A stretch of DNA of 64,000 nucleotides from Terebella lapidaria. Lineage: Eukaryota; Annelida; Polychaeta; Terebellida; Terebellidae. The first letter of the stretch is position 1. Each line of letters opens with the position of its first letter. Below the pieces are notes generated by a model that had not been told where the DNA came from, made no database searches, and saw only the letters and a program-made list of their open reading frames with translations. A program made the translations under genes and the position numbers. The stretch is from positions 21,105,402-21,169,401 of the forward strand of contig OX424567.1 of assembly GCA_949152475.1 (NCBI GenBank), given 5' to 3'. Below, in pieces: positions 6,290-55,455 of this stretch.

Positions 6290-7440
6290 AGATATCGACG
6301 AAAATGAAAAATGTCGACTCCGCGAAAAAATTTACCATTAAAATTAGACACGTTTGTCTAGGGCGACGAGTCTAGGGCGACGAAAATAACGTCCGTTTCG
6401 CTCTACGACACACCGTTCCCGAGATATCGACGAAAACGAAAAATGCCGGCTCGGCAAAAAAATTTCGGGTCAAGGTCAAAGTTCATCCATAATACCCCTT
6501 AGACATGTTTGTCTAGGGCGATGAGTCCGAAAATAATGTCCGTTTCGCTCTACGACGCACCGTTTCCGAGATATCGACGAAAACGAAAAATGCCGACTCG
6601 GCAAAAAAATTTCGGGTCAAGGTCAAAGTTCATCCATAATACCCCTTAGACATGTTTGTCTAGGGCGACGAGTCCGAAAATAACGTCCGTTTCGCGGGTC
6701 AAGGTCAAAGTTCATCCATAATACCCCTTAGACATGTTTGTCTAGGGCGACGAGTCCGAAAATAACGTCCGTTTCGCTCTACGACACACCGTTTCCGAGA
6801 TATGCAGGATGCCTTAAGGATGACTCAGCAAAAAATTATTTCGACCTCTAGGTCAAAGGTCGTTTGACGTATCGATCCCAAAATCAATAGGGTTCTTCCC
6901 TGTTGATATATAAACCTCCGTGCAAAATTCTGCAACTATTGCCTGAATATTTTTCGTCCGGAGTTATCGTCCGGAAACCAAGTTTCAAGATCAGCCTCGA
7001 TTTCATCCTCAAGGACCTCACGGACCTCGGAGCCGGATCAAAAAAAATAATACACCCTAGAGATGTTTGTCTAGGGCGACGAGTCCGAAAATAACGTCCG
7101 TTTCGCTCTACGATGCACGGCTTCTGAGATATGCAGGAAGCCTCAAGGATGAATCAGCAAAAAATTATTTCGACCTCTAGGTCAAAGGTCGTTTGACGGA
7201 TCGATCCCAAAATCAATAGGGTTCTTCCCTGGTGGCATATGAACCTCCATGCAGAGTTCTGCAACTATTGCGTAAATATTTTTCCAGTTATCGTCCGGAA
7301 ACCAAGTCTCAAAATTAGCCTTGATTTCATCCTCACGGACCTCGGATCCGGCTCAAAAAGAATAGGGTTCTTCCACATATCATTTCTGACTTGTGGTGAA
7401 AATTTGACGAGGATCCGTCAAGGCAATCTAAAGTTATCGT
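6290..7440. repeat. Composite tandem repeat array
   Basis: Imperfect units of about 150 bp share GGTCAAGGTCAAAGTTCATC and GTCTAGGGCGACGAGTC. They recur at about 6300, 6420, 6560, 6690 and, in part, 7060. A second unit of about 330 bp, starting at GAGATATGCAGGA, occurs at about 6798 and 7125 and carries TTATTTCGACCTCTAGGTCA. No coding signal. Confidence 0.7.
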
Positions 7441-9214
7441 CCGGAAACCAAAAGTGGCGGAAGAAGAAGAAAAAGAAAAAAAAAAAAAAAAAATTCTGCT
7501 AAAACCATAAGGCAGAAATGCCTTAATAACTATATACCGGTATAGATGTATATCTTCGCTACTCAGTAAAGAATCTTTGATCACAGAAAGAAATATATAT
7601 TTCATACTCTACTAAATATTTCATTCTGTTCAATAATATCACCAGTAACATACATTTAGGTTCTGGATCGATTTCGTACTATCAAATTTTCCTAAATTTT
7701 CCATCATTACTAGGAAAGTGAAGTATCTACTGCTTCTATGTGTATAATAACATGACATGTACTCCTACCATGAAAACTGATCATACAATATAGCAATATT
7801 TACCAATTATAAACTGATCATACAATATAGCAATATTTACCAATAAGCAGTATTTTAAGGTGAATTATCTTTTGCATAGCTGTGCTTTGTTCAGTGTATA
7901 CAATAAAGAAACATAAACAGAAATAAACCTATGGAAAGCCGGTACGACATGCGAGAAGTGAACTATAAACTATGACTTATTCCATAGTAAACCATAGTTT
8001 AATATGAAAAAAATGTGTATACCAATATTCAAGCTGCATTGCGTTGCACACAAGTCGCAAAGTTAACTGGCGTGCCGCAGTTTATAACTCGCATGTAGCA
8101 GTTTATAGGCTAACTCACAGGTCACATGTCCATGTAAGAAATATTTCTCGCTTCTCGCATGTCACATGTCGCTTCTCGCACTGGCTTTCCATATGAACCA
8201 CTAACAACATACATTACAGATATGATAGCATTGATGAACCAGGTCAAATGTCATGACAATGTATAATGCTTGTGTAAAGTAGCTACCCGGTATTACATAT
8301 CTTATTTTAAAATATAGAATTGCAAATTATAAATACAAAATCACCACCAGACACGCACATATACCATAATTTAGAAAATATTGAATACTGAACTGTATAT
8401 TCCTTGTTCGATCGTGCAACATTCCCATTATTATTTAATCATTTAATGACATTTCGGAAATATTTATTATACTAGTATTTAGAGAAGATTATTCAATTCG
8501 ATGTGAAATAAGCACTTTAACTTACAAGACAAGCTTTACTTAGGGAGCCACCGCAAAGGGCTAAAATTTGAAATTTCCTTTAACCCCTAGGATAAGGTCG
8601 CTCACTAGAGCTCAATTTTATAAACTATAAAGTTTCTACTTCTATGTACTAAATAAATGATAATCCCTGATATCTTATATTCATTCATTTCAATAACTTC
8701 ACCACATGTACATGGGCAGAAAAAGAGTGGAACACCTTCGTAATATAGTTGCAATTTCAAGCAAAGCTTAATGTTTATCACTAGCAAAAAAACATAGTTG
8801 AGAAACTGCCAGAGTATACAATGAACAATGATTGTATATTACATGAAAACATTACTCCTCTGTTGCCTTCGTGGACACCGAAACCCACATCACAGTTTAG
8901 AAAAAGCCGGAGATTACAGATATCTTTGTCTTGAAGAGTCTTTAAGAGTTTCAGTTAGTCGTCAAGTGACTCGTATCTGGAACAGAAGAAAGACATTCGC
9001 ATCTTCAGACACACACGATAATATCCGACTTCTGTAGATTACGATACATTAGTGTGAAATAAGAACACTGCAAATTTCTAATTTTAGTGGTATCACTCCA
9101 TGCATATTAGGGCCAATAAATTGAAATTACCAAAATTTTCATACTTCATTGAATTTCCCATAATGCACAATACCACAAAACAAACAGGACTGTTGCTACT
9201 GTACATGAATATCC
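7441..9214. other. No gene recognised; likely 3' flank of LZTFL1
   Basis: An A-rich simple repeat (about 7458-7495) is followed by A/T-rich DNA without recognisable coding. The right part probably holds the LZTFL1 3' UTR, since the stop codon is at 9215 on the minus strand. I did not fix a poly(A) site. Confidence 0.35.
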
Positions 9215-14732: not shown

Positions 14733-17700
14733 TTAAAAGTGGCTAAATTTCAGTGTTTTCCTGTTTTTCCGCTCTTTCTTGTCACTGAGCATGCGGTTAC
14801 TTTGCCTAATGGTGTGGTGAAGTCTGATGTTTATCATGAGATGAAGGATCAACAAATGAATGTTACATGATGTGCAGGTCAAGTCCTCTGGGATGAGATC
14901 CACGAGTGCTTGAGAAAGGGATGACTTGACATGAGGGGCACATATCAGCTGGTCAATCACTTCTCTGTACTTGGTCTCCATCTTCTCGAGAGTAGTCGTC
15001 AGTGATGTACTGGGAGCCAGCAGACCTTCCTTCGCACCAGCGTAGTTCTTGGTTGAGATGAAGGCGTGTTTGGGATCCTCCTGGTTGATCGAAGCACTGA
15101 TGTTTCCTCGGCATGGGTCACATATCTTGTCTCTGATCTTGCGGACGATGTATCCACCGATGTAGGCTACAACGTTTGACTCTTGTAACGAGAGTTCCTC
15201 AGACTTGGCTGATGTTGAGGCCTTGGAGTGCTCTGCGTCTACTTTCTGTTGGGCCAGCACTGGGGATTCGATGACTGGGTCAGGTGGAGCCACAACCAGA
15301 GATGATACACTCGAAGGCAGGGTGTCCTGAAAGCCGGTTGATGGCCTGGGAACTGTGGCCTGCCAAAACAAATATTACAGCATTATATCAACAATGGATC
15401 GTACACTACAATAATATCAAATCAGGATTCATTACATTTAGTCTTAGAAGAAGGCCATCATGGGTTAGGGAGATTTGACCATAAATACCATACATTGTAT
15501 ACATTAGTAATTCACACCTTTGCAGATTCAGGGGCTTGCTTCAAGGTGAAGACAAAGTCATCTAGATCTTCTTCACAGTTACCAAACTTACTCTGTTCCA
15601 TCACTGAATCCACCATGATCTACAATTTTGTTCAAACACATCATGTGAACATGGAACAGATTTATTTTCACAATATACTATTATAATACATGTACATATA
15701 TGGAATTTTGTACTGAAGCCTATGGTTATTGCAAATATTTCATGTTTTTCTAAATTTGTGATTACATTTTACAATGCTAACGATATGCAAATATATCATG
15801 AGATAAATTGCGATCAATAAAATATACAATACATCAATAAATACCTGACGAAGAGCTGCTCTGAATTGGGAAGCGTTAGGGTTGTCACGTGCTGCTCCTT
15901 TGGCTCGCACAACAGAGAACAAGTTCTCGACACAGTCCTGGTTCAGACGTCTTGTGAAGAGGAATGTGAAGTGGTGAACCTTGTGCAAGAAGTCCCACAG
16001 CTGCAGGAGTGCGTTGATAGCGATCAACCAACCATTCAGACATGGCAATTTGCGCGAACCTATTTTAAGATGAAAAAAGAACCTCAGGCTATTATAACCT
16101 CAACCTATTTCAAGATGGAAAAACATTAGGCCAACAGGTAATTGCCCCAAAATTATAACATCACAAAAGATTACTGAAACACACTTTTTGTTTGTATGGA
16201 CTGAATCCATGTCTTCTTGGCTTCCAGGAACTCTAAGTGTCCAGATTTGTTGGAGAGGGCGTGTCGCATCATGGCTGTACTGGTCAGGGAACTGCTATTG
16301 AAGCAGTTGAATAGCTGATCCATGTCCTCGATGAAATCTGCGGTTGGTCCTGCGTCCTCATCCAAGATGTTCCACTGGATCATCACTTTCATGCCGGATG
16401 CCACCGAATGACTCAGAAGTTGTGTTGCTAACTTCACTCTCAGCTGGCTGAAGGGGGGCAGTTTGATGTGTCTGAGTGTGAGTCTTGGTGCCAAACGGAG
16501 GGGTTTACTTGCATCTTTGTGATAGAAATCAACAACATCTTGCCACTCAATGGTCTTCCCATCAATAGTGAAGCCACTCTTCTTGAAATTGTTCCTAACA
16601 TTTTTCACTAGGTGCGGAGGATCAAACATGACGAAGATCTTGTCCTGGCCTCTGAAGAAGAATGGCTCCTCAGCAGTGATCTTGAGGTGTGTTTTGAAAG
16701 TGCTGATGTTATTCGGACCCTGGTCGCTAACTACAACAATCACTGTTAGTCCAACTGCTTTGAGTTCATCAATTGCTTGGAACAACAGGTCTTTCAGTCG
16801 AGTGGCATTGATCGTGCTGTTTGACAAGAAGAAACCAAATGGCTGCTTCCACCGTTGTTTGATCCCTCGAGCAACGAAAACTAAAGTGTGGTTGGCCATT
16901 TCACCTCCATCGAGCCCTTCTACGATGTCCTGCTTCGGGTCATATTCCAGTCCTTCCTTTATAGCCATTTCATCTAACGCCAAGCAGACTAGCTTGTCAG
17001 GATCAGGTAGGTTGCTGGCTTTACACTTGAGTGCTGAAAGGATAACCTCACTGAATCCTGGGTAGATTTCCAGATTACTCATGGCTTGTCTCAAGGTTCT
17101 TACGGATGGCAGGAAGAAGATTTTCCTCAACAACTTGTAGTTCTTGGGACTGGAGTGAAAGAGAGACAGTGCGAGAGCTTTGTCATCTGTCGTCCACCTT
17201 CTACCTCTCAAACGTCGCTGGGAAGCTCTGACTTGAGACATCACAAATGTCAACTGAGGACCTGTAAATGGAAACATTTAAGCTATAAGTTTGTATCTGT
17301 GTACTGTAACACATGCATAAATATCAAATTCACCCCTACTTGGTATTAAAGAAACTTGCCTATGGGTTTGGGTACTAGCAAATTGGAACTCCTTGTATAT
17401 CCCCCATACATAATAATTCCCCATCAATTACTGCATGTGTATGCTTTCCAGCAATGTACCTTCAAAAAATTCACCCAGCAGCTTCTCCAGCTCCAACATC
17501 TTGGATTTTTTGGCTAGTTTGTGGAGCTGTTTGATGCTACTGGACTTCTTTTTCAGGCGAAATACCTAAAATTTAGATTGGATGTACTTAGTACTTAGCA
17601 TAACATACATTCGCTTTATTAATTTTTAAAACAAATACAATCAACAAGTTTGACTTGAAAACTATGTGAATGTATGACTTGCATGTGTGTACACTAGAAG

Positions 17701-20340: not shown

Positions 20341-20344
20341 CTTA
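20341..20344. repeat. Target-site duplication of LTR element (CTTA), left copy
   Basis: CTTA immediately before the 5' LTR is repeated at 31046-31049 immediately after the 3' LTR, as expected for integrase-mediated insertion. Confidence 0.8.
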
Positions 20345-20967
20345 TGTAGAATATTTACGACTGTTATGGCCCGAAACCCGCCCCTGACACATTCTCCCAC
20401 TCGACATACACGGCACAGATTCATCACATGACTTCATACTTACTTACCTTACGTCACCGGGCATGCACCGTCCTCGCACCACATCTACATGTAAACAACA
20501 CTGCTCACATTAACACTTCCTACAATCCCACCAATCACCACATTCCCAGACACATGACTCCGCCCACACAGACATGACATCACTTTCCCGCCATTTCACA
20601 TGAACACCTGCCACATTACGCGGGAAAACCCACACACATCATGGACTTAGCCCCGCGCTTTCCCACGGACATAGTAGTAGTTGAGAAATCTGTTGAAGAG
20701 AGAAGTTGTATTGAGAGGTACTAAGCCAAAAGATTGTGATTAGAGGATATCAAATTTATACAGGACTATTAATACTTCGGACTATTGTGGGGATTACGAT
20801 TGTGTGAGTGACAGTGATCGTACATCGGACTTAATCATCCAAATAAACATCGGATATTGTTGCAATTGACGTCGGACTTCCTGTTGGTGTGTTCACGCAC
20901 AACATACATCGTACTATTCGATCAGTGGGCGTAATAGCCGCCCGAAGAACTCCGCTATTCCGTCACA
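20345..20967 (+). repeat. 5' LTR (623 bp)
   Basis: Starts TGTAGAATATT and ends CGTCACA, giving TG...CA ends. Identical in length to 30423-31045 and nearly identical in sequence. No strong TATA box stands out. Confidence 0.95.
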
Positions 20968-20968
20968 T

Positions 20969-20986
20969 TGGTGCCGTGACCAGGAT
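20969..20986 (+). promoter_or_regulatory. Primer-binding site
   Basis: TGGTGCCGTGACCAGGAT begins one base after the 5' LTR. TGG matches the CCA end of a tRNA primer. I did not assign the tRNA. Confidence 0.75.
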
Positions 20987-21036
20987 AGCGAAGGCCAGTT
21001 CTCGGCTTACGAACTATCCCGACGTACGAACTTTTG

Positions 21037-23532
21037 ATGAATACCCGATCTACGACTCGGAACCCGATCGGACCAAGCCCGGAAGATGAGGTGACGATGA
21101 ATCCGGTCCCAGCGAACCAGCGAACTGCACGACCAAGGTCAGTGGCGATGAGCGATACTATTACGCTATCGCAAGTACAACCGCCAAACGAACTGTACGA
21201 ACTATCGTCGGCGGCATCCGTAGAGTACATGCCGGACTGGATGCGAGCCGATAGTAACCTCGAAGAACTGTTGGACGGTGACCCGTACCAGCCGTCGCGC
21301 ACGGTGACAGAAATCCTTGACGCGCATGCGCGGTCATACCACGCGACACCCGCCGGACCGCCAAGGTCGCGACCAAGCGACGGAAGTGAAACGGACTATG
21401 CGCGCTTCCAGCGCCAACCCAATACCGACCCGCTACCTAAGTCGGTGAGTGTACGACCAATGAACTATGACAATTCCATGTTAACGCACCCGCCGAGTCG
21501 GTCGCGTGTCCAACAATGGTCGCATGAATCGGATACGCGTGCTGAACTGTATCCGCGACACGACAATGTAATGTCGCGCCCACCGGTAACAATCCACACA
21601 CTGATGCGACCCGACCGAACCCTGCCGGTGTACTCCAGAGTACCGGCCGACCCAGTCGTCACGGGAGAGCTGCCGGATGTCCACCTGCCGAACCGGAGAA
21701 GAGCCGCCACCGAGAGTACCCCCGCGGCCGACCCCAGGTTCAACGCCGCCCAGACGAACGACCCGCCGACACGATTCTACGCACCCGCGCCGAGATCGGA
21801 GGTCCGATACACCAGCGACACCATCGATCGCCGACCGCGCAACATCGGAGTACCGATCTCCGACACCAGCGAAAACACGCACCCCGCGCATCTACCACCA
21901 CCGGTAGTCAACATCGGACCATCGCACGGCGAATCGTCGCTACCAGCGGAACATTCCGCCTCACACGGCTACGTGCCCAACCATGGAAATGCGGTGCCCA
22001 TGCACAATCATGGGGGAGTAGCAGTATCGAACTATGGAAATGCGGTGCCCATGCACAATCATGGGGGAATAGCTGTATCAAACCATGGAGTACCAGCGTA
22101 CGGTGTTGCCGCGTACAATCACGGAATAGTGCCCAATTTGGGAATTGTGCCGCAAAACAATGGAGTAGCAGTTCCAAGTGTGTACGCTCCTGGTTCGGGA
22201 TACCAGTTCCCACAAATGCCACACCCAACTCCGTCATACGGAATGCCGGAAATGTCGCCGCCATACGGACCGGTCTCCCAAACCGCGCCGTTGTCAAATC
22301 ACGCTGGCTACCCGCCCGCACCCGACGCCACGCCATACGTCGTACCGGTCACCATGACCACTGCCGCACCGACCACGGAGGTCGCGCCGCCAACTCCCGC
22401 CGTTTCTGCGACGACTGCCCACGCTACGACAGCGGCATCACAAGCGCCCATCATCCCGACGCTAGCGCTGAGTACTGCCAAACCAGCACAGTGGCGAGCC
22501 ACGTTTAAGGAGGGTAATCTAAATCAGTACATCCGCAGCTTCGAACAGTTTACGGCTGCATTCACGTACACGGACCTGAACAAAACTACGACATTCCGTA
22601 GTACGTTACGCGGACGAGCGGAAGCAATCGCTCTGAACATTCCGTTCAACACGCCTTGGGATGAATTCAGGCGTCGTCTCCTGGAAGGATGGGAACCCGC
22701 CGCCCGCCGGCAATCGAAACGAGACGACTTCCCGTTCTTGAAGCGTGAACGGAAAGAAGATGCCGAACATTTCCTTGAACGGCTACAAGCCATAGCAGAA
22801 CAGGTGTTCGATGACGTCACACCTGAGTTTCTCCAACGAACTGTTATTTCGCAATTTGTCAATGGTCAGCCTGACCATATTGCGGATAGACTTTGTGTAA
22901 TGACATTCACTTCGTACAGCGACGCACTCACGGCTGTACTGAAAGCAGAGAGTCGCCAGCAGCGGACCAAGAGAGATCGTCCCCACGGTACCCGCCGAGC
23001 GGACGCCACCTACCACGGGTATGCCGACGACACGGAAGCGAACGACGAACTTTCATGTGCGATCGGACAGTTGCATCATTGGGATACACCGACTTCCGAT
23101 CAGATCGCTGCGTACTACGACCCTGCAGATAGCGACACGACCGGACTGCAAGGGTGTGAAGAACATTCCGTCCCTTCCTGCTTCCGCGAATGGGTCGCGG
23201 AAGCGTTCCAGTGTGTTGTTAGTGATGAGTGCGGACAATATGGTGAGGACGCACTATACTCTGTTCTACGGGCTATCGCTCAGGCTCGTGGCGACCGTCC
23301 TACGCCTCAAGGTCGAACTGAAATATGTTTCTTCTGCAAGAAACCGGGACACAGGTGGATACGGTGTTACCGTTTGAAGGACATATTGGTACGAAACGGA
23401 ATGAAACCGTTCCCGCCACGCCCTGGCGCAAATCGGAATAACGGACAGATCGGTATACCGAACTCGAACTCTCAGCCAATGGCTACGACACCACCGGCTC
23501 AGCCACCACCACAGGCCAGGCCGTCAAACTAA
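21037..23532 (+). CDS. ORF1: Gag-like protein with zinc knuckle
   Basis: 831 residues from the ATG at 21037. The N-terminal half is a low-complexity region rich in Pro, Ser, Thr and Arg. At 21979-22080 a 51-bp unit is duplicated, giving repeated NAVPMHNHGG blocks inside a His/Asn/Gly-rich stretch. The next part (about 22480-22960) has the helical retrotransposon-gag pattern: WRATFKEGNLNQYI, then FRSTLRGRAEAIAL, then AEHFLERLQAIAEQV. Near the C terminus is one CCHC zinc knuckle, C-x2-C-x4-H-x4-C, in CFFCKKPGHRWIRC. This should be the structural protein that packages element RNA. The pol frame opens about 90 nt before its stop in another frame, so pol may be made by frameshifting; I saw no classic slippery heptamer. 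Confidence 0.87.
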   Translation: MNTRSTTRNPIGPSPEDEVTMNPVPANQRTARPRSVAMSDTITLSQVQPPNELYELSSAASVEYMPDWMRADSNLEELLDGDPYQPSRTVTEILDAHARSYHATPAGPPRSRPSDGSETDYARFQRQPNTDPLPKSVSVRPMNYDNSMLTHPPSRSRVQQWSHESDTRAELYPRHDNVMSRPPVTIHTLMRPDRTLPVYSRVPADPVVTGELPDVHLPNRRRAATESTPAADPRFNAAQTNDPPTRFYAPAPRSEVRYTSDTIDRRPRNIGVPISDTSENTHPAHLPPPVVNIGPSHGESSLPAEHSASHGYVPNHGNAVPMHNHGGVAVSNYGNAVPMHNHGGIAVSNHGVPAYGVAAYNHGIVPNLGIVPQNNGVAVPSVYAPGSGYQFPQMPHPTPSYGMPEMSPPYGPVSQTAPLSNHAGYPPAPDATPYVVPVTMTTAAPTTEVAPPTPAVSATTAHATTAASQAPIIPTLALSTAKPAQWRATFKEGNLNQYIRSFEQFTAAFTYTDLNKTTTFRSTLRGRAEAIALNIPFNTPWDEFRRRLLEGWEPAARRQSKRDDFPFLKRERKEDAEHFLERLQAIAEQVFDDVTPEFLQRTVISQFVNGQPDHIADRLCVMTFTSYSDALTAVLKAESRQQRTKRDRPHGTRRADATYHGYADDTEANDELSCAIGQLHHWDTPTSDQIAAYYDPADSDTTGLQGCEEHSVPSCFREWVAEAFQCVVSDECGQYGEDALYSVLRAIAQARGDRPTPQGRTEICFFCKKPGHRWIRCYRLKDILVRNGMKPFPPRPGANRNNGQIGIPNSNSQPMATTPPAQPPPQARPSN

Positions 23533-25658
23533 GGGAGGAAGGAACTGTGGAGCAAGAACCTTCCGTTAAACCGAGCTACGCTCAAAGCTCCAAACCAGTG
23601 GTTGTGTCCACAGCTACGAACACGACGCCAACCAAGCTGGCGCCGACACCACGGGCCCTTCCGCTCCGCGAAGGGGTGTGCGCCAAGTGTGCTTCGTCGA
23701 CGTCAGGTACGGAATCCCTCCACGAAGGGGTGTCGGAACCATTGCCACGCAGGCCATCACGGACTAATCGTCACGAAGGGGTGTCGTCACGCACCGTCAG
23801 ACGGATTAAGGTGGTTCCCGTCGGACCCGAGAAATACTCCCTGGACAGTGATACCATGACATCACCGGTCTTATCTCGGATGATCTCCATACGCCAAGCT
23901 GCATGTGTGCGAGCATTGGATGTGAAATTGAACGGACAGGAATGGCTGTCGGACTATTCCAGCGCCGATATCGTTGCCGCACAGCAAGCCGACCCGAGCG
24001 TCGGATTCGTACGACAGTGGGTATTGAACGGAACGAAACCCACGTCAAAGGAAGTCGCCCGCTACGGTGAGGAAGTGAAAACTTTGGTTTCACGATGGAC
24101 TTTGTTGGCGCTACAGGATGGAGTCCTCATACGTACTACCAAGCCGGACCCAGCTGGTCGGACTGTTGTACAAACTGTGTTACCAGCGGCATTACGAACG
24201 GTGGTTCTACACCAACTCCACGACCTCAAGGTCGTAGGCCACCTCGGAATACAACGGACTGTTGAGAGAGTAAAGCGCCGGTTTTACTGGCCAGGTCTCG
24301 CCTTGGATGTTGCCCGCTGGTGCGCCCGCTGCCCGCAGTGTGTGTCACGAAAAGGAAAACCAGCGCCCAAGAAATCACCTCTAACGCAACTACCAACTGG
24401 GGCGCCATTTGATCGTATTGCCATGGATATCTTAGATACCCATAAAGTTACCGGACGAGGTCACAGGTACATTCTTGTCATATCGGACTACTTTTCAAAG
24501 TACACGGACGCATTCCCGCTCCGCCGCCATACGGCTAAAAATGTCGCCGATGTTCTGGTGAATCGTTGGATCGTGTACCACGGAGTACCGAAAGCCATAC
24601 ACAGCGACCAAGGAACGGAATTTGAGTCGTCGTTATTTCGGAGCGTTGTACGCCTTCTGGGCGCCAAGAAAATTCGGACCACGCCCTACCGCCCACAAAG
24701 TGACGGTCAAGTCGAACGATTCAATCGGACTTTGTTGAATATGTTGAGTGCATTCGTCAGTGATCGAAAGAATGACTGGGATCTGCACTTACCATATGTA
24801 CTCATGGCGTACCGCACCTCGGTGCACTCTTCTACCGGGTGTACACCACACCTGATGGTATACGGACATGAATGCAATTTGCCTGTTGACTTGATGTTTC
24901 CTTCGTATGACCCAGAACCGCTACCTCCATGCGGACCTGAATACGTCGAGTATCTCCGAACCGCCATCAGAGCTGCCCATGGGTTTGCGCAAGACCATCT
25001 GCAAAAAGCTGCAACCCGCCAGAAAATGGGGTATGACGCACATGCGAAATCTCGCCCTCAGTTCCAGCCGGGAGAATTGGTACGGTACTACTACCTGCCC
25101 CTCACCCAGAACAACAAATTCGCCCGACCCTGGACCGGACCCTGGAGAGTCCTGGAACGCGTAACTGAGGTAGACTATCGAATTGCTCTAGTCTCCAATC
25201 CACGAAATACTAGAGTCGTCCATCTGGACGTCATTAAACCATACGAAGGCGACGCACAGTTGCTGAACCTTCAACCTCAAGTCGGATCGCCACCTGAGTT
25301 GTCAAGTAGCACAGACTCCAAGACCGAACCATCGAACGATCCCTTGGAGCTCCTCAAGGAATTCCTCTATCCTTGGGACGTCATCGTACAAGACAAGTCG
25401 TCGGACACAGATCGGACTACCGAGACTGATACTTCGTCATCACCCGCCAGTCGGAGAAGTCCCGCAATCGGACCGCGACGCCGTCACCAGAAGCGAAAAT
25501 CGCGCAAGACGAACTCTAGCGCTTCACAGAGAGCGCCAAAACCCCGCGGACCCAAACCCGCGATTGTTACGGACTCATCAACAAGCGAGGCTACGCCCCA
25601 GCCTGCTCCGTACCATCGACCCAGACGCACGATTCGCCGCCCAGCCCGGTTCAGATAA
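23442..25658 (+). CDS. ORF2: Pol remnant, integrase without protease, RT or RNase H
   Basis: The frame is open from 23442, overlapping the gag end by about 90 nt; the first start-like codon is GTG at 23547. After about 150 residues of unmatched, Thr/Pro-rich sequence comes the pre-integrase segment (WVLNGTKPTSKEVARYGEE; LQDGVLIRT). Then follow an HHCC zinc domain (GHLGIQRT, FYWPGLALDV, CPQC), a catalytic core with Asp at 24426, Asp at 24606 and Glu at 24714 (D-x59-D-x35-E), and a GPY/F-type C-terminal module (PWTGPWRVL). A basic tail follows. Integrase inserts the cDNA into the genome. A normal gypsy pol has protease, RT and RNase H before this; no YxDD or protease DTG/DSG motif is present. 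Three copies of the element's polypurine tract sit in the unmatched N-terminal part. Confidence 0.9.
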   Translation, partial: RTDRYTELELSANGYDTTGSATTTGQAVKLREEGTVEQEPSVKPSYAQSSKPVVVSTATNTTPTKLAPTPRALPLREGVCAKCASSTSGTESLHEGVSEPLPRRPSRTNRHEGVSSRTVRRIKVVPVGPEKYSLDSDTMTSPVLSRMISIRQAACVRALDVKLNGQEWLSDYSSADIVAAQQADPSVGFVRQWVLNGTKPTSKEVARYGEEVKTLVSRWTLLALQDGVLIRTTKPDPAGRTVVQTVLPAALRTVVLHQLHDLKVVGHLGIQRTVERVKRRFYWPGLALDVARWCARCPQCVSRKGKPAPKKSPLTQLPTGAPFDRIAMDILDTHKVTGRGHRYILVISDYFSKYTDAFPLRRHTAKNVADVLVNRWIVYHGVPKAIHSDQGTEFESSLFRSVVRLLGAKKIRTTPYRPQSDGQVERFNRTLLNMLSAFVSDRKNDWDLHLPYVLMAYRTSVHSSTGCTPHLMVYGHECNLPVDLMFPSYDPEPLPPCGPEYVEYLRTAIRAAHGFAQDHLQKAATRQKMGYDAHAKSRPQFQPGELVRYYYLPLTQNNKFARPWTGPWRVLERVTEVDYRIALVSNPRNTRVVHLDVIKPYEGDAQLLNLQPQVGSPPELSSSTDSKTEPSNDPLELLKEFLYPWDVIVQDKSSDTDRTTETDTSSSPASRRSPAIGPRRRHQKRKSRKTNSSASQRAPKPRGPKPAIVTDSSTSEATPQPAPYHRPRRTIRRPARFR

Positions 25659-27089
25659 CCACGGCTGTGCCAAGGGACTGATCTCAATGATGATGAATAA
25701 ATGCCTGTCTATTGGACTATAATGTCATATCACCCCAAAATATATTTATAATATAATAATATTATGTACATATTCATTTCAATAACCATTTTTATGTACT
25801 GATGTCAGTGAGGCAATTTTCATATATAATATTGATATGACGTTATAATGTTGATGCTGGTTACGATACTATAATGTGGTATATGTGTGTTATGCATTGC
25901 ATATAACTTCGTACTTCTCCATACCATCTCGCGCCTGTTGCGCACTACCTAAATATTGCATGACTAACAATTCCACCCATGTGTCAGCCGTCATGTCCTG
26001 CCGTGAGTAAGATCACTTTGTCGCGGACGAGGTGAGAGGATAGCCGTCTTCCGAGCAAGCGTCTGATAAGAGCCTCTGCTCCCCCTACGTACAATTCAGG
26101 GGAATGCCCTCAGGAGCAGAATTCAGCTATGAACAAACCTCTGCATTCCAACGCGCGATCTGTCATCACATTCATTGAAAATTATGCAACGCGCCACGGC
26201 AGGGCCGCCCAGATCACCCCATCACCCCTCATGATAATTTTAGCGGTTCCATTATCTACGGCACTAGATGACAATGAACGGACTGAGCAAACTTCTGTGA
26301 GCTTGGTATTTATACCTCAGCATACGTACGGACAGTGATCATCTGTTTAAACAAGTTGGTCAAAAGTTTATTGTGTGCTAATTGTGCAGATAAGGAACGG
26401 ACTAATTGTGAGAGTTCACACGGAAAAGCATGAAGCACAAATAAACACTGAAGCCGCCTGCGGCACCTCCATATAAACATTCCCAGTTAACTTCAATAGA
26501 GAGTGGAAGCACGTAAAAGGTGCAGTAATTTTGACTGTATGCTAGACGGACAGTGAAATGATTGGATTGCGTTATCCAGAAGTTTGTGTCGGACTATGGG
26601 AAAATAGAGCAGCTGTGTGCTAACCTACTGCCCCGCCTGACTGGTGTGATGAACCAGAGCTTTGATGTACACGCGTTGCCTAGGTGATGGACCGCCCCCT
26701 CTTCGCACGACTGAGAGCCGAGATGGATCAAGCGAACGTAAAAAGACGTATAAGACAATAAGACAGAGCGCACCCCCCGATTGTGGAAAACCGCAAAAGA
26801 CACTGTCAGCACTTTGTGTGTGTACGGATGCCAGATAAGCAGGAAAGTTTTGGAAGTGGGTCCTTCTGGCTGCGGACACTGGAGAGTTAACATCTAGCGG
26901 AAAAGTGTTGAATATCAACAGTGTTCTTATAAGACAATTGACTATATCTTGTGGATATTTCGTACGGCAATTGCACGGACTTTTGCCTAGTATTTCACGG
27001 ACTGTGTGAATAATCCTGATACGCACCTTGTATTAGGATAAAAGTCGGACTAGCGAGTGTGGGCTCACGCCAGTGAGCGAAGTCGAACC
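25659..27089 (+). other. Noncoding spacer of the LTR element, rich in CGGAC
   Basis: A 1.4-kb stretch between pol and ORF3 with no sustained ORF on the plus strand. CGGAC occurs at least ten times, about eightfold over chance, continuing the pattern seen in the ORFs. It may hold a subgenomic promoter, splice acceptor or packaging signal for ORF3; none is proven. Confidence 0.55.
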
Positions 27090-29930
27090 ATGTCGTCTTC
27101 CGACAAGGAGAGAGACAAGCCACCGGACAAGAAGACGGCATCTGATGCCGATAATAACGAACTGCCACTTGCCGTGAGGATAGTGGAGGCTGGGGATGAG
27201 CCGGAACATCCCATCGTACTTGGAGAATCGGCGACAGCCGACAGCGCACCGGGAACAGTTTCCCCTACCTCGGACCCAATCACGATATCGGATACAGAAA
27301 CGGCCTCTGGGGCCGAAACGGACATTCGAAAGAAAGTAATGGCGAAACTCGCTCAACGTGGAGAGCGTCATACGCCGAGTCCATCATCGGACTCTATGTC
27401 GGACTTGAGTGCGCCTGACTTCCAGCGCCTGGAAGAAGGCGGGAAAATTGTCGAACAAGCCATGGCTGCTAGAGACGCAGCTAAAGCCACGGCTGGTGTT
27501 ACTTCGGACTCCGGACCAAAACAAATGATGGCTACTCCGCCAGTGACAGCCGCACGACCGACCGCCGTGTCGGCTACTTCGCCTGTTTCAGCCACACCGG
27601 CCAAACCCGTACGACCCCTCGCGTTGCTCCCGCACGCGACGACATCGCGAGGATATTCCTCGGCATACACGGACTTATTCCGGACTCAGGGAAATCATGA
27701 GTCACGGGATCTACGACAACGGACTTATCGCCGTCAAGTTGACGAGTTGATGGAGCTCGTACCTCGTCCCCCCACACCCCACGGGACGAGTCCAATCGAC
27801 TGGAACGCGGTTCCACTTTACGACCGGAACCGGCACGCAGGATATGGCCATGTCCATGATTTCTCCGTACCGTCGACACTGACAGAGAGTCAGTACTTGA
27901 CTCTGATGCCGCTACGCCTCGGAACAGGAGGATTCGACTGCCCCTTCTGTACCAGTGAGGAGGAGTCGGAACGTGAACGGACCTGGCCCACGGTGCCTCG
28001 CCGGGCCCCACTTCGGACCCCACAGGAGCTGGATGCTCATGTTCTGGCGTATCATATGCCATTTGTACGTTTCTTTGTGTGCCCCGCACGGGACGGGTAC
28101 ATGACCCTAACGCTTTCGGACATGATACAACATATCTCGATGCCCACGGCGAGTCACACGGACCGATTCCCCATTTTCCAACGGGGATCACTAATGGCCA
28201 CCGAGAATATGGTAACTCGTTTCGCCAAGCGATGTGGGGTTGACATGCAACCCAATCCGAACTATCGACCACCGCGCGTACCATCGCACGTACCCATCTT
28301 CCGACGGACGCCGGAATCGGTACTCACTTTCGGCATCTGGGCGATGGCGCCCGCGGTGATGTCACAGTACCCGCCGAATACCGCACCGGAGGTCCAACTG
28401 GTACTGGATCGTATCGAGTTTGCCCAACTGAAAACGAGGGCCGACGAAGCCAAGGTCGAACGGATGGTACGGGACATCCAACTGATTAATCGTCACGTCC
28501 GCTACCGGAAGCCTGGGGCTTTCTATTTCGACCGCCCTGTTGTATATCGGACCTCGGCCATGAAGGCCGCTGAATCTCGGACCTCGGCCATGAAGACCGC
28601 CGAACCTCGGACCTCGGCTTCGCCAGCCACAGGAGTTTCAACTCCCGCACGGAGTTCGCCCTCGGGGGCGATACCCAAGAGTCGGACTGTTGAGAGGCCT
28701 ACAGCGCCTAACGTTACGGACTATAGAGTTCGGGAGGGACTTGTGCCACCCCCGGACGAATATCCGCCCCTGCCAAGTCGACCTACGGTCGAGACAGACG
28801 CAGCTGAATCCTCGGACTCAGTTAAGACTTCGGACCCAGCCGAACCTATGGAAACGGCTAAGACTACGGACTCTGTGGATAGGGAGCCTTCCCCCAAGAC
28901 GGCTTTTCAAGCCCCAACTACGGACACTGAGTCGCCGATGGAGTGCGACCAGCCGCCACCACTTCGGACTATCGAGGATGAACCAGAACCTCGACAACGT
29001 CAGACACCCGACAGCAGGCCGGACTCTCCCATGGAGCCGTCTCGCGGCCTGATCGCTTTCGGACCACCTCCTCCGTACCTGGATTATGAGGAGGAGTTGT
29101 TGCCCCCAACGACCACCTTGGTTACACGAGCCAACGACCCGGACAGGCCTCGGCTAAGGATGGAAGTCCTGGAGGACCAGGATCCATTACCTCGCGACCT
29201 GGAGGTCAATTTCGGACTTCACGGATCTGGTGAGTTCGGTGCGGACTACCAGCTACTTCGCCAGCACGGGCAAAGGTTGCTCGAACGGACTTTACCCGGA
29301 CTACAAGTCCTCCCCGGAATTAACCCGGATTTCGCCGAACTCTACCAGGACGACAACACACGTCGTCTTCCTGCCGGACTCGGACCGCATCAGTCGTACT
29401 GGATGGAGCAAATCACCCAGGCTGCCACGGATGCGGACCCTCTATTACTAGCGGAAGATGCTGAGCATCACCTCCCGTCGTTGGCACTGGCCAGCGCGGA
29501 CGACCTGGCACTTCAACATCTGCGAGCTATCCGCCGCGGATACGTACTCGCCATGGACGCGCACATCCGCCAGGCGGAGTATAACGCCATGTCCCTAGGA
29601 TTCGGGATGGGATCGCTACACGAGCGACAGACCCCGACAGCCCCGCACCCTCTCCTGGAGGAGAATCGACGACTCCGGGAGGAACTTCGTACTGCGGAGC
29701 AAAATAATTCGAACTTACGAGAAGAGGTACGGGAGCTTAGAGCCCGCCTCTCTAATACTTCGTCCTCGTCTTCGTCGCCAGAACCTCAGGGAATCCCTGA
29801 CGAACTTTGGACGACGATTGTGGCGGTTCTACCGCACTTGCCGGCCGACGACCAGAGGCGGTTGATGCAACAGGCATCGCCAGCCGCCCGGCCTCCCGCG
29901 TCACGGAGACGCGACCGTCAGTCGGACTAA
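27090..29930 (+). CDS. ORF3: large extra protein of unknown function
   Basis: 946 residues from the ATG at 27090. I recognise no family. It occupies the place of env, yet I see no signal peptide, no membrane segment and no Cys-rich ectodomain. Visible parts: an acidic Ser/Thr/Pro-rich N terminus; a central folded-looking region (about residues 190-480) with a possible zinc site, Cys284-x2-Cys287 then His317-x4-His322; a repeated RTSAMK block; a long Pro/Glu/Asp-rich linker (about 500-700); a second folded region; and a C-terminal coiled coil (HPLLEENRRLREELRTAEQ...) before a basic end. The make-up suggests a nucleic-acid-binding or capsid-like accessory protein. The frame is uninterrupted and the LTRs are young, so it is probably under recent selection or simply young. 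Confidence 0.85.
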   Translation: MSSSDKERDKPPDKKTASDADNNELPLAVRIVEAGDEPEHPIVLGESATADSAPGTVSPTSDPITISDTETASGAETDIRKKVMAKLAQRGERHTPSPSSDSMSDLSAPDFQRLEEGGKIVEQAMAARDAAKATAGVTSDSGPKQMMATPPVTAARPTAVSATSPVSATPAKPVRPLALLPHATTSRGYSSAYTDLFRTQGNHESRDLRQRTYRRQVDELMELVPRPPTPHGTSPIDWNAVPLYDRNRHAGYGHVHDFSVPSTLTESQYLTLMPLRLGTGGFDCPFCTSEEESERERTWPTVPRRAPLRTPQELDAHVLAYHMPFVRFFVCPARDGYMTLTLSDMIQHISMPTASHTDRFPIFQRGSLMATENMVTRFAKRCGVDMQPNPNYRPPRVPSHVPIFRRTPESVLTFGIWAMAPAVMSQYPPNTAPEVQLVLDRIEFAQLKTRADEAKVERMVRDIQLINRHVRYRKPGAFYFDRPVVYRTSAMKAAESRTSAMKTAEPRTSASPATGVSTPARSSPSGAIPKSRTVERPTAPNVTDYRVREGLVPPPDEYPPLPSRPTVETDAAESSDSVKTSDPAEPMETAKTTDSVDREPSPKTAFQAPTTDTESPMECDQPPPLRTIEDEPEPRQRQTPDSRPDSPMEPSRGLIAFGPPPPYLDYEEELLPPTTTLVTRANDPDRPRLRMEVLEDQDPLPRDLEVNFGLHGSGEFGADYQLLRQHGQRLLERTLPGLQVLPGINPDFAELYQDDNTRRLPAGLGPHQSYWMEQITQAATDADPLLLAEDAEHHLPSLALASADDLALQHLRAIRRGYVLAMDAHIRQAEYNAMSLGFGMGSLHERQTPTAPHPLLEENRRLREELRTAEQNNSNLREEVRELRARLSNTSSSSSSPEPQGIPDELWTTIVAVLPHLPADDQRRLMQQASPAARPPASRRRDRQSD

Positions 29931-30410
29931 ATTTCGGACCCCAGGGCACAGCACCAGGATAGCTGTGTCCTGTACATATCGTACTAATCATACCATATAT
30001 ATATATGTGTGTAATTCGAACCAATTAATCCTGGTCATTTTCAGGTGTTTCGGACTTTAAAGTGTTTCCGTTCCGCTAGGGAGCGTCGAGGAGTATTTTC
30101 ACATTCCAATGATATAATATGTATATACATTTGTGATTCTTTTAACTGTGATTTATGTGTTGATTTATGTGTTTCATCGTCACCTGTCGTTGTTTTAAAT
30201 GTATTTGTCAAATGTGTTCATATCATCTTAGTGACTGTGGACTGACCGACCAATGACTTTATTTTGACAGTTACAATTTTTATTGTATCCATTGCTTTAT
30301 CATTGTCTCGCGCGGTGAATGTGTTTCCCTTTAGGACTTCTAGCTTATCATGTTTAGATTTTTGGACAGTTAGGTTTCGGGGAGGGTAAATTCCCAGGGG
30401 GTAATTTGAC

Positions 30411-30422
30411 GAAGGGGTGTTT
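30411..30422 (+). promoter_or_regulatory. 3' polypurine tract
   Basis: GAAGGGGTGT lies two bases before the 3' LTR, where plus-strand cDNA synthesis should be primed. The 12-base form ACGAAGGGGTGT recurs inside ORF2. Confidence 0.75.
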
Positions 30423-31045
30423 TGTAGAATATTTACGACTGTTATGGCCCGAAACCCGCCCCTGACACATTCTCCCACTCGACATACACGGCACAGATTC
30501 ATCACATGACTTCATACTTACTTACCTTACGTCACCGGGCATGCACCGTCCTCGCACCACATCTACATGTAAACAACACTGCTCACGTTAACACTTCCTA
30601 CAATCCCACCAATCACCACATTCCCAGACACATGACTCCGCCCACACAGACATGACATCACTTTCCCGCCATTTCACATGAACACCTGCCACATTACGCG
30701 GGAAAACCCACACACATCATGGACTTAGCCCCGCGCTTTCCCACGGACATAGTAGTAGTTGAGAAATCTGTTGAAGAGAGAAGTTGTATTGAGAGGTACT
30801 AAGCCAAAAGATTGTGATTAGAGGATATCAAATTTATACAGGACTATTAATACTTCGGACTATTGTGGGGATTACGATTGTGTGAGTGACCGTGATCGTA
30901 CATCGGACTTAATCATCCAAATAAACATCGGATATTGTTGCAATTGACGTCGGACTTCCTGTTGGTGTGTTCACGCACAACATACATCGTACTATTCGAT
31001 CAGTGGGCGTAATAGCCGCCCGAAGAACTCCGCTATTCCGTCACA
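30423..31045 (+). repeat. 3' LTR (623 bp)
   Basis: Near-identical copy of 20345-20967, followed directly by the right CTTA duplication at 31046-31049. Confidence 0.95.
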
Positions 31046-33255
31046 CTTATGATATTGGGTTCGACACACCAAGCTACAAAACCATAATGATATATTTCTG
31101 AGTTGTGTATTAGTCGGATCTCTCCCAGCAGACTACTGCCTGGTTGAGATATGGTGCCTGCAGTAAACATGCCGCAAGGCAGGGCATTTGCGCCCTAGTA
31201 GCAGACGCCAAACGTGAGAACTGCCTCCTCCAGTGTCGGTGGCACGCGTGGTAGGCCTCCCTAAAAAAAAAAACACCACATCCATGAGCATTAATTTATG
31301 TCCGGGCCCGACCCATAATCTCTGCTGCTTGCTGTTCCCTCTGCTGCACGACCGCCACCTCTTACGAGGTCGGCGTCCATCTCCTCTGTTCTGCCAGATG
31401 ACGCGTCTGCGCGGACCTAGAGCTTCTGAGCCTAGAGCGCCCTGGACCTAGAGCTTCTGAGCCTGGTAGAGGAAGAACTCAGGCAGTACAGTTCCGACGC
31501 CGCCAGAGCCTATGCCAGTCTGTAGGCCAGGCGGTGGACCATCGACGAGATGTTCAGGAATGTGTACCATCTGATGCAAAGCTGGTCAATCTCCTGGTGC
31601 CCCAGGCCATTCATGACCTGAGGATGGAACTCTTTATGGCAGGCATTGGGGGAGGAGTACCCTTGGGATCACCCCCAACAAGGCACCTGCACTGTGGTGT
31701 ATCTCGTGGTAGAGATGGACCGCTCTCTGGACCGGATGCACTGGTACCATGCTGAGGCCTCTCGTGTTGCATGCAATCTTGCACACGACCAGGGTCTGAT
31801 GGAGGGTACCTGCCAAGATCTTACCACAGCACGCGAGCAGCTGGCATTCCATGAAGGAAAGGCCACAGCTCGTAAAGTGGCAGATAAATGTAAAGAGTTT
31901 GACTCCCACGAGGTACAGGGGGACGTCCAGTGAATGCATACTGAGAACGAGGCGCTACGGCATTATTCGCGTTTTTGTGCAGCCGGGTGTTGATGACCCC
32001 TTGTCCGCCCTGAACCGGATTGTTGAAAACTGCTCCTACGTAGCCCTGGAGCTCGCACTCTACCCCATTTTAGTTCAGGAATGGGGAGAGTGCGCTGGGC
32101 CTATGCGTAAACAGGACAAGGTGGAGATGTTCAGTGCCATAGTCAACCTTGGCACTGAAGGACTCCCACCCTTAAGCCAGCTCCGGACTTTCCCCTGCCA
32201 CACCCAAGAAGGATAGGGGACCCCCTTCTTTGGGTCCCCCTCTCATGGAGGAGGGAGAATAACCTGTCCTCGTCCCCTCGTGTCCTGCAAGGGTAGATGT
32301 GCTGGAGTTGCTCCTAGTGGTCCACCCTGCCCGGATCCTCGCGAATCTGCTGGCGCCGGCTGGCGAGGGCACCTTGGAACCTGCATAGAGGTACTTTCAC
32401 AAAATTTCTAAATTTAAAGGTTAATCGGATTCGAAATACTCAGGAAAGTCCCTTTCAGCGGATGACTTTCCCAGGTCATCATCCTTTCTGGAGCACCTTG
32501 TTCAAAATTTCAGCTTGTTCATCAGGGTTTATTCAAAAAGCTACTTGTAGGAGCGCGCTACAGTGCAGTCCGTTAAGTCCAGGAGTCGTTCCACATTCTT
32601 GCAAAACAGGCCCTTAAGGTCTTTCTGCGTCGCGACTTTGAGTGCAGCTTAACTTGCTTCCTTCTTGTTCCGCCATGTGAAACTTCTGGTCGTGTTGGCC
32701 AAGGTGGAATATGTTGGGGACCAACATTGTAAGAAAGGGGGAAAGTGGCAATTTTGCCAAAAGATCGTGAATTCGTGATAGGCTTCTGGTCACGGTAGGG
32801 CACCGTATTTTGGCCACTTCGCATTTGAAGCTCACGTCTGCTTGGAGACGCTTTTCATTCATCAATCCACTTGATTATAACAAGTCTGTAAATATCACAC
32901 CCTCGCTCTCGTTCGCTGGCTGTTATAAATACAGCCAACCCGTCTTGGTTTCTTTGAGTTGTCTCAGAGCTGTCAAGGCGAGAGCGTGGCTATGTGCTCC
33001 TGTCCAGGGACAATTCCAATGGGGTCCCAGAAGGGGGGCTACTGTTTACGCACCTGGATTGGTGGTCTCTCGCCCTGGGATGGTTCTGACAGACTGTTGG
33101 GCTATCCGGGGCTCTATATCCCCGTGATAAAAAGTGATGAGTTCTGTATCAGTCGGATCGGAGCCAACAAACTACTACCTGGTTGAGATGTGGCGCCTGC
33201 AGTGACTGTGCCGCAGGGTTGGGGGGCTTGAGCCCTAGTTGCGGGTGCCAAACGT
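31046..33255. mobile_element. Decayed repeat or retroelement remnant with direct repeats
   Basis: About 120-bp diverged direct repeats at 31098-31216 and 33133-33255 share TCGGATC, ACTACTRCCTGGTTGAGAT, GCCTGCAGT and GCCAAACG. Between them is G/C-richer sequence with broken open frames on the plus strand (for example 31646-31933 and 31851-32216) that look coding-like but match no family I can name. A TATAAA-type box occurs near 32925. This could be an old LTR-type element, with the young LTR element inserted beside or into it. Confidence 0.45.

Positions 33256-37197: not shown

Positions 37198-55455
<18,258 letters not shown>

What the first reader, a model, noticed from the sequence alone, without database searches (positions are those of the whole stretch)
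20667..29932. Dense strand-biased CGGAC motif through the whole LTR element
CGGAC, often as CGGACT, is far above chance: 12 in 28501-29040, where about 0.5 is expected, and about ten in the noncoding 25659-27089. It also occurs in the LTRs. In ORF3 it is read in different codon frames (NCG-GAC and CGG-AC), so it is not a protein repeat. The complement GTCCG appears rare. A motif on the RNA-sense strand across coding and noncoding parts suggests an RNA-level role. GGACT fits the m6A consensus; a Gag zinc-knuckle packaging site is another option.
Basis: partly seen in the sequence, partly recalled or inferred. Interest (0 to 1): 0.78.

Follow-up and report, generated by a model that had tools for sequence, protein, structure and literature searches.

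The report
Retrotransposon families carrying different RNA barcodes
A mobile element in an animal genome repeats a short RNA word nearly 200 times along its message while a close sister element in the same genome repeats a different word, as if each family labels its RNA so that its own protein can recognise it.

Summary
In the LTR element (20345-31045) CGGAC occurs 92 times and GTCCG twice. Codon-aware shuffling ranks CGGAC first of 1024 5-mers (second to GGACT); all three frames and noncoding parts show it. The true word is looser, (A/T)CG(G>N)AC(T>C): CGNAC 187 against 90 expected. m6A is not supported: DRACH sites lacking the word's CG are not enriched. A held-out region passed: the RT part missing here but present in four longer copies shows the same excess. 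CGGAC equals the IMP1/ZBP1 KH4 site (PMC5300891), but its partner CA motif is at most weakly coupled. Decisive result: a sister family in the same genome (RT-RNase H part 84%, IN 78%, Gag C-terminus 70% identical) lacks the CGNAC excess and has its own sense-strand word, CG(A/G)CCC, 68 against 15 expected, reverse complement 0. Where residues are identical the families still differ (43:3 against 14:16). The signal is thus RNA-level and family-specific. An element-encoded reader (Gag or ORF3) using it for self-recognition or packaging is most likely; no binding is shown.

The parts
20345..20967 (+). 5' LTR, 623 bp, TG...CA; 4-bp target-site duplication CTTA at 20341-20344
   Evidence: 2 differences to the 3' LTR over 623 bp; ends checked
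20666..20877 (+). four CGGAC sites of the 5' LTR (20666, 20778, 20826, 20873); none in 20345-20640 (U3-like)
   Evidence: AATAAA at 20842
20969..20981 (+). putative primer-binding site TGGTGCCGTGACC next to the LTR
   Evidence: read by eye, letters checked; matching tRNA not tested
21034..23532 (+). Gag ORF (832 aa) with a Retrotrans_gag-like region (below Pfam's cutoff) and a zinc knuckle at 23326-23367
   Evidence: CGNAC 46 vs 29.1
23547..25658 (+). ORF with integrase (H2C2, rve, p58_C); protease, RT and RNase H not found in this copy
   Evidence: CGGAC 20 vs 7.6, CGNAC 38 vs 21.4
25659..27056 (+). noncoding spacer, 10 CGGAC, all from 26024 on
   Evidence: CGGAC 10 vs 0.8, CGNAC 19 vs 3.7
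27057..29930 (+). ORF3 (957 aa); only sub-cutoff coiled-coil matches in Pfam and NCBIfam; highest CGGAC density at 28521-29120 (21.7 per kb)
   Evidence: CGGAC 38 vs 14.9, CGNAC 69 vs 31.4; homologue in the sister family
29931..30422 (+). 3' noncoding part, two CGGAC (29935, 30051), then none to 30743
   Evidence: CGNAC 4 vs 0.7 in 29931-30424
30423..31045 (+). 3' LTR with the same four CGGAC sites (30744, 30856, 30904, 30951); duplication CTTA at 31046-31049
20666..30955 (+). sense-strand array of the word (A/T)CG(G>N)AC(T>C): 187 CGNAC and 83 WCGNACY in the parts counted once (within 20345-30424)

Best explanation
The repeated word is a transcript-wide set of RNA recognition sites that marks the element's sense RNA as 'self'. 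Shown: it is on the sense strand, it exceeds codon and base expectation in three frames and in noncoding DNA, the same excess is present in the RT part of longer copies, and a sister family in the same genome lacks it and carries a different word, CG(A/G)CCC. Which protein reads it, and that packaging is the step, are not shown.
For: Strand bias 92:2. Codon-aware excess of CGNAC 187 vs 90.2 (z 14) and WCGNACY 83 vs 23.5. Synonymous choice, pooled over three ORFs, one test per frame: NCG before Asp, odds ratio 2.8, P 6e-5; CGG before AC, 4.7, P 2e-4; GGA between C and C, 8.6, P 1e-4; a fourth test, GAC rather than GAT after NCG, 2.8, P 0.02. Held-out RT part in 4 of 4 longer copies read: CGNAC 32-36 vs 15.6-18.6, reached by 0 of 500 shuffles each; the copies are near-identical, so this is in effect one test. 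Sister family: CGRCCC 68 vs 15.1, reverse complement 0 vs 3.5; the same word in ORF3 pieces of two further copies, 9 vs 2.6 and 9 vs 2.7. At 2,679 six-base windows with identical residues, our family (fam1) has 43 CGNAC and 3 CGRCCC, the sister (fam2) 14 and 16, P 6e-6, approximate because windows overlap. CGGAC bases are slightly more unpaired than with shuffled flanks (P 0.016; CGHAC P 0.06; two control words not). Exact CGGAC is kept in 96 of 104 comparisons with the copies, other CG-starting 5-mers in 531 of 628.
Against: No binding data. The Gag zinc knuckles of the two families differ at 1 of 14 residues, so a simple zinc-knuckle code does not explain two words. CGGAC is exactly the IMP1 KH4 site, and part of the sister's signal (CGGC, CGGCA) coincides with IMP3's GGC core (PMC6531468), so a host KH protein is not excluded. 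Conservation is not clear: kept as a class, CGNAC (177 of 196) does no better than other CG classes (464 of 512, 110 of 116), and exact CGHAC is 77 of 92. The words are not wholly exclusive: CGACC alone is somewhat high in fam1 coding (33 vs 21.2), though CGRCCC is not (11 vs 12.1). Local folding does not single the sites out: CGGAC ranks about half-way (56th of 110) among 5-mers with four G/C. Only two families of this genome were read, the sister's Gag-Pol from one copy. A distant relative (L001) has no CGNAC excess and only a weak word, GGAGA, z 5.2. CGGAC is missing from U3 and from 30056-30743.
Confidence: 0.5

Rival explanations
1. Host KH protein of the IMP/ZBP1/VICKZ family binds the element RNA through KH4 at UCGGACU sites and localises, stabilises or translates it; the element has multiplied a zipcode half-site.
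For: The KH4 ligand of ZBP1/IMP1 is CGGAC, tested as UCGGACU; TCGGACT is the top 7-mer of the element (19 vs 0 reverse; 18 vs 2.1 expected in the once-counted parts). IMP proteins interact with retroviral Gag or RNA (PMC10385356, passages). IMP3 prefers CGGC and GGCA, and the sister family is rich in CGGC and CGGCA. A weak excess of CA motifs 10-14 nt upstream of CGGAC exists (MCAY P 0.06, ACAY 0.035, ACAC 0.024, uncorrected).
Against: MCAY within 10-25 nt on either side: 39 of 88 sites, 44% vs 47% in shifted controls; CGGAC-MCAY pair counts rise only in step with CGGAC itself. KH4 discriminates strongly at the second G, but the element tolerates any base there. The sister family in the same host lacks the CGGAC excess, and its main word CGACCC is not an IMP site in the papers seen. 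CGGC and GGCA are below expectation in fam1 (40 vs 59, 20 vs 30; partly a shuffle effect).
Confidence: 0.2
2. m6A marks: GGACU is the best DRACH site and the element collects methylation sites.
For: T>C>A>>G after the motif fits H of DRACH. DRACH as a whole is 246 vs 218.
Against: That excess comes from CGRAC: other DRACH sites are 137 vs 174 (partly a shuffle effect). CGCAC and CGTAC, which are not DRACH, are enriched, and AGGAC, GGGAC, TGGAC are not. The sister family has a word without RAC.
Confidence: 0.05
3. Splicing- or export-enhancer sites for host SR-type proteins that keep the long unspliced RNA competent.
For: Sense-strand spread through coding and spacer parts; ORF3 lies far downstream and may need its own RNA (inference).
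Against: WGGACRA (SRSF7, recalled) 2 vs 4.0. Sister families in one host would be expected to share such sites, but they differ.
Confidence: 0.1
4. Compositional or codon drift of each family without a reader.
For: The element and the sister's coding parts are rich in G+C and in C-containing words on the sense strand; CGGAC in Gag alone is not significant; class-level conservation is not raised.
Against: Shuffles keep codon or dinucleotide content and still fall far short; the excess is in noncoding DNA and in all frames; at identical residues the families differ.
Confidence: 0.07

Closest known systems
Dispersed packaging signals of RNA viruses (MS2, satellite tobacco necrosis virus, parechovirus, HBV core)
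   Same: Many copies of a short degenerate word spread over the genome and read by the coat protein (PMC6281560, PMC5431903, PMC7612645: search listing and abstract starts only).
   Different: Those words are described in stem-loops (abstract of PMC7612645; otherwise recalled); here no strong hairpin context. Here it is an LTR retrotransposon with about 187 sites and a different word in a sister family.
beta-actin zipcode and ZBP1/IMP1 KH3-KH4
   Same: Core CGGAC, with U on both sides in the tested ligand (PMC10484666 passages).
   Different: No clear coupling to MCAY, any base tolerated at position 3, word not shared by the sister family.
Ty3/gypsy LTR retrotransposons; named integrase relatives in the hit list come from Mytilus, Priapulus and Patiria
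   Same: LTRs, Gag with zinc knuckle, integrase with H2C2/rve, RT and RNase H in longer copies.
   Different: An ORF3 at the place of env with no known family, and the transcript-wide word.
HIV-1 genome-wide A-richness and Gag's A-rich binding in immature virions (recalled)
   Same: Whole-genome sequence tuned to Gag.
   Different: There a composition bias, here a defined 5-6 base word.

Membership tests
Ty3/gypsy (Metaviridae) LTR retrotransposon | LTR pair with TG..CA and target-site duplication | tested here: met
   623-bp LTRs, 2 differences, 4-bp CTTA duplication
Ty3/gypsy (Metaviridae) LTR retrotransposon | integrase downstream of RT-RNase H in pol | tested here: met
   not in the window copy (RT, PR, RNase H not found) but in 4 of 4 longer copies read, L010-L013
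Ty3/gypsy (Metaviridae) LTR retrotransposon | Gag with CCHC zinc knuckle | tested here: met
   CFFCKKPGHRWIRC by eye (letters); Retrotrans_gag 16.1 bits, below its 24.1 cutoff
IMP1/ZBP1 zipcode | CGGAC core | tested here: met
   88 CGGAC vs 34 expected
IMP1/ZBP1 zipcode | MCAY within 10-25 nt of CGGAC, above background | tested here: not met
   39 of 88 sites, no more than shifted controls; weak upstream excess at 10-14 nt, P 0.02-0.06 uncorrected
IMP1/ZBP1 zipcode | bound by IMP in cells | not testable with these tools
   no CLIP data
m6A DRACH site cluster | excess of DRACH irrespective of the preceding bases | tested here: not met
   DRACH lacking the C or the G of the motif 137 vs 174
Dispersed packaging signals | same-strand word repeated through coding and noncoding genome beyond codon constraint | tested here: met
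Dispersed packaging signals | word presented in hairpin loops | tested here: inconclusive
   slightly more unpaired than with shuffled flanks but unremarkable among 5-mers of like G/C; loop type not scored
Dispersed packaging signals | bound by the coat/Gag protein and needed for packaging | not testable with these tools
   no binding data; structure models too poor to use

The most novel reading that the evidence does not exclude
Each family of this retrotransposon lineage labels its whole transcript with its own short word, read by its own Gag or ORF3 protein; the words switch as families split (CGNACY against CGRCCC at 82% identical Pol), so that sister families living in one germ line keep their RNAs apart. 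It would be an RNA-level species barrier among retrotransposons.
Probability: 0.42. Interest if true: 0.88.

Novelty: new variant of a known kind. Interest (0 to 1): 0.76.

Why it matters
How Gag proteins pick their own RNA, and how closely related retrotransposons avoid packaging each other's RNA, is open for most elements (own knowledge). Two families in one genome with nearly identical zinc knuckles and different transcript-wide words give a natural swap experiment: binding of each family's Gag and ORF3 to the two words can be tested directly with short RNAs. It also warns that a match to a host RBP site (here IMP1 KH4) can be coincidence.

Tried and rejected
Protein relatives: ORF3 none among 7,993 scored, Gag C-terminal region none among 5,956 candidates, IN 975 at E<=0.001 among 7,990 scored. 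IMG/VR: 4 scans with IN, an IN alignment, ORF3 and P0003, no relative confirmed. GTDB contigs: one relative, L001, IN 40% identical, with an ORF at the ORF3 place; no CGNAC excess (73 vs 70.9), and the zinc-finger-like region of its ORF3 does not align with ours beyond chance (P 0.48). Rfam (gathering threshold) and tRNA scans of the window: nothing. Structure predictions of an ORF3 part and the Gag C-terminus are unusable (pLDDT 32 and 39); no fold search was run. Spacing of CGGAC sites is random (CV 1.0). The coupled bipartite zipcode was rejected. A miRNA-seed reading was dropped because base 3 is free and the flanks are mixed (reasoning). Depletion of near-miss words is partly an artefact of shuffling and is not used as main evidence. 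A third family was sought with protein P0016, but the tool did not complete. Paper searches bearing on the motif in retroelements: none; three papers, none on this by title and abstract start; one (IMP3); 20 of 29 listed; 10 of 1,399 listed; 7 of 8 listed. A sunflower LTR-retrotransposon paper (PMC7730604) holds CGGAC twice, both in primer tables (passages). No report of such a word was seen; the library is open-access only. A paper on zipcode spacing (PMC3258965) is not held.

Papers: PMC6531468, PMC10484666, PMC4477473, PMC10385356, PMC7730604: passages; PMC5300891: passages and section 9; all others: search listing and abstract starts only. HIV-1 Gag A-rich binding, WGGACRA for SRSF7, stem-loops for most viruses named and zinc-knuckle binding habits are recalled.
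Full report
What was checked. The rest of the 64-kb window has 26 CGGAC and 46 GTCCG, so the bias belongs to the element. The element is an LTR retrotransposon: LTRs 20345-20967 and 30423-31045, two differences over 623 bp, 4-bp duplication CTTA, Gag ORF 21034-23532, integrase ORF 23547-25658, spacer, ORF3 27057-29930. Its host is an animal: of ten neighbouring minus-strand frames given to Pfam, four match laminin G, EGF or F5/8 C domains and two match mobile elements. Its genome is held as 761.6 Mb in 438 contigs.

Is it more than codon or base bias? Yes. Noncoding parts were compared with dinucleotide shuffles and coding parts with shuffles of synonymous codons. CGGAC ranks first of 1024 5-mers (88 vs 34), or second to the overlapping GGACT in another draw. 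All four CGNAC words are enriched (CGAAC 38 vs 22, CGCAC 31 vs 18, CGTAC 30 vs 16), while changes at positions 1, 2, 4 or 5 give no excess, apart from a small one for CGGAA (28 vs 19). The non-G versions as a group share the flanking preference, A/T before and T/C after. The word is therefore (A/T)CG(G>N)AC(T>C): CGNAC 187 vs 90.2, WCGNACY 83 vs 23.5, the reverse complement GTNCG 33 vs 42.6. By part, CGNAC is reached by at most 5 of 1000 shuffles in each of the three ORFs and three noncoding parts. CGGAC alone in Gag is not significant (14 vs 9.8, P 0.08). Synonymous choice towards the word is visible in each frame: NCG before Asp, CGG before AC, GGA between C and C. Dipeptides that can encode it are also somewhat over-represented in ORF3 (Ser/Pro/Thr/Ala-Asp 34 vs 23.6, Arg-Thr 13 vs 7.1).

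Held-out test. Protease, RT and RNase H were not found in the window copy. The U3 query gave 40 matches at 99-100% identity (40 scored of 1,025 first-look candidates); by distance and strand several LTR pairs are about 12.4 kb apart against 10.1 kb here. Mid pieces of four longer copies carry RT, RNase H and IN and are 97.2-97.6% identical to the window in the shared part. Their RT part, absent from the window, has 32-36 CGNAC against 15.6-18.6 expected in each of four copies, reached by 0 of 500 shuffles, with 0 GTCCG. The four copies are closely related and are in effect one test. In the shared 3.2 kb, exact CGGAC is kept in 96 of 104 comparisons, other CG-starting 5-mers in 531 of 628; but exact CGHAC is kept in 77 of 92, and CGNAC as a class (177 of 196) does no better than other CG classes (464 of 512, 110 of 116). 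Purifying selection among copies is thus not established.

The sister family. A search with protein P0003 scored 55 matches of 10,925 candidates, all 60-61% identical to it with no stops inside. One was read as 8 kb (L034). Its pol is 1140 of 1385 residues identical to our family; by part the RT-RNase H piece is 84%, IN 78%, Gag C-terminus 183 of 262, ORF3 C-terminal part 52-53%. It has no CGNAC excess (33 vs 50.3) but CG(A/G)CCC 68 vs 15.1, reverse complement 0 vs 3.5, and CGGCA 34 vs 12.6. The excess is also in the part after pol, 22 vs 2.0, which holds a broken ORF3 and noncoding DNA together, and in ORF3 pieces of two further copies (9 vs 2.6 and 9 vs 2.7). In our family CGRCCC is at expectation (11 vs 12.1), although CGACC alone is somewhat high in coding parts (33 vs 21.2). 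Where both families encode the same residues over six bases (2,679 overlapping windows), ours has 43 CGNAC and 3 CGRCCC, the sister 14 and 16, P 6e-6; 11 of the 43 sites are CGNAC in both. So the words are not a by-product of the protein sequence.

Interpretation. A reader common to the host cell (m6A machinery, an SR protein, one IMP protein) would be expected to see both families alike. The difference points to a reader that travels with the family. Gag and ORF3 are the candidates. In the parts compared, ORF3 is the more diverged of the two, and the zinc knuckles differ at one of 14 residues (CFFCKKPGHRWIRC, CFFCKKPGHRWMRC), so what would read the differing half (AC-U against CC-C) is unknown; the shared half CG(R) could be read by the conserved knuckle. 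This last step is inference. The IMP match is striking and was followed: CGGAC is the KH4 ligand. Its KH3 partner is not coupled over 10-25 nt, with only a weak upstream excess at 10-14 nt; the second G is free here although KH4 discriminates there; and the sister family lacks the word. The sister's CGGC/CGGCA coincides with IMP3's GGC core, which keeps the rival alive at lower weight; its strongest word CGACCC does not.

Limits. One genome, two families, plus a distant relative (L001) with only a weak word (GGAGA 50 vs 27, z 5.2 against a null 95% limit of 4.2). No binding, expression or packaging data. A third family could not be reached because the genome search did not complete.

Noticed in passing
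window 42929-48286 (-): DIRS-like retroelement with RT (RVT_1) in the right flank; a 97% copy of part of it lies in background locus L032. The name DIRS is recalled from the look of its frames, not from a family match.
   Followed up: partly
window 16171-17277 (-): P-element-like transposase (TNP-like RNase H and GTP-binding insertion domains).
   Followed up: no
L001 1-13374: A contig filed in a Calditrichota MAG is a Ty3/gypsy-type element (Gag, PR-RT-RH-IN, a 1058-aa third ORF) with a 91-bp terminal repeat: a circular molecule or a repeat assembly artefact, and probably a eukaryotic contaminant of the bacterial bin.
   Followed up: partly
L001: Weak sense-strand excess of GGAGA (50 vs 27) and CGGAGA, possibly that element's own word.
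   Followed up: partly
window 25659-27056 and 29931-30424: TGTGT is also in excess in the element (28 vs 8.7, z 6.9), 19 of them in the noncoding parts; unexplained.
   Followed up: no
L034, L035, L036, L037: Three of three sister-family copies read over ORF3 have it broken, with losses of different extent, while the one Gag-Pol read is open, as if ORF3 is dispensable or supplied in trans.
   Followed up: partly
window 21979-22080: 51-bp tandem repeat in the N-terminal part of Gag.
   Followed up: no
window 6344-7493 and L020; L024: Repeats rich in GTCCG (a 47-bp tandem unit in L024; L020 matches the window repeat many times) that would mimic an antisense bias in naive scans.
   Followed up: partly
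L033 1291-3600 and 4347-6656: Two equal-length 770-aa open frames one after the other in a background locus, not examined.
   Followed up: no
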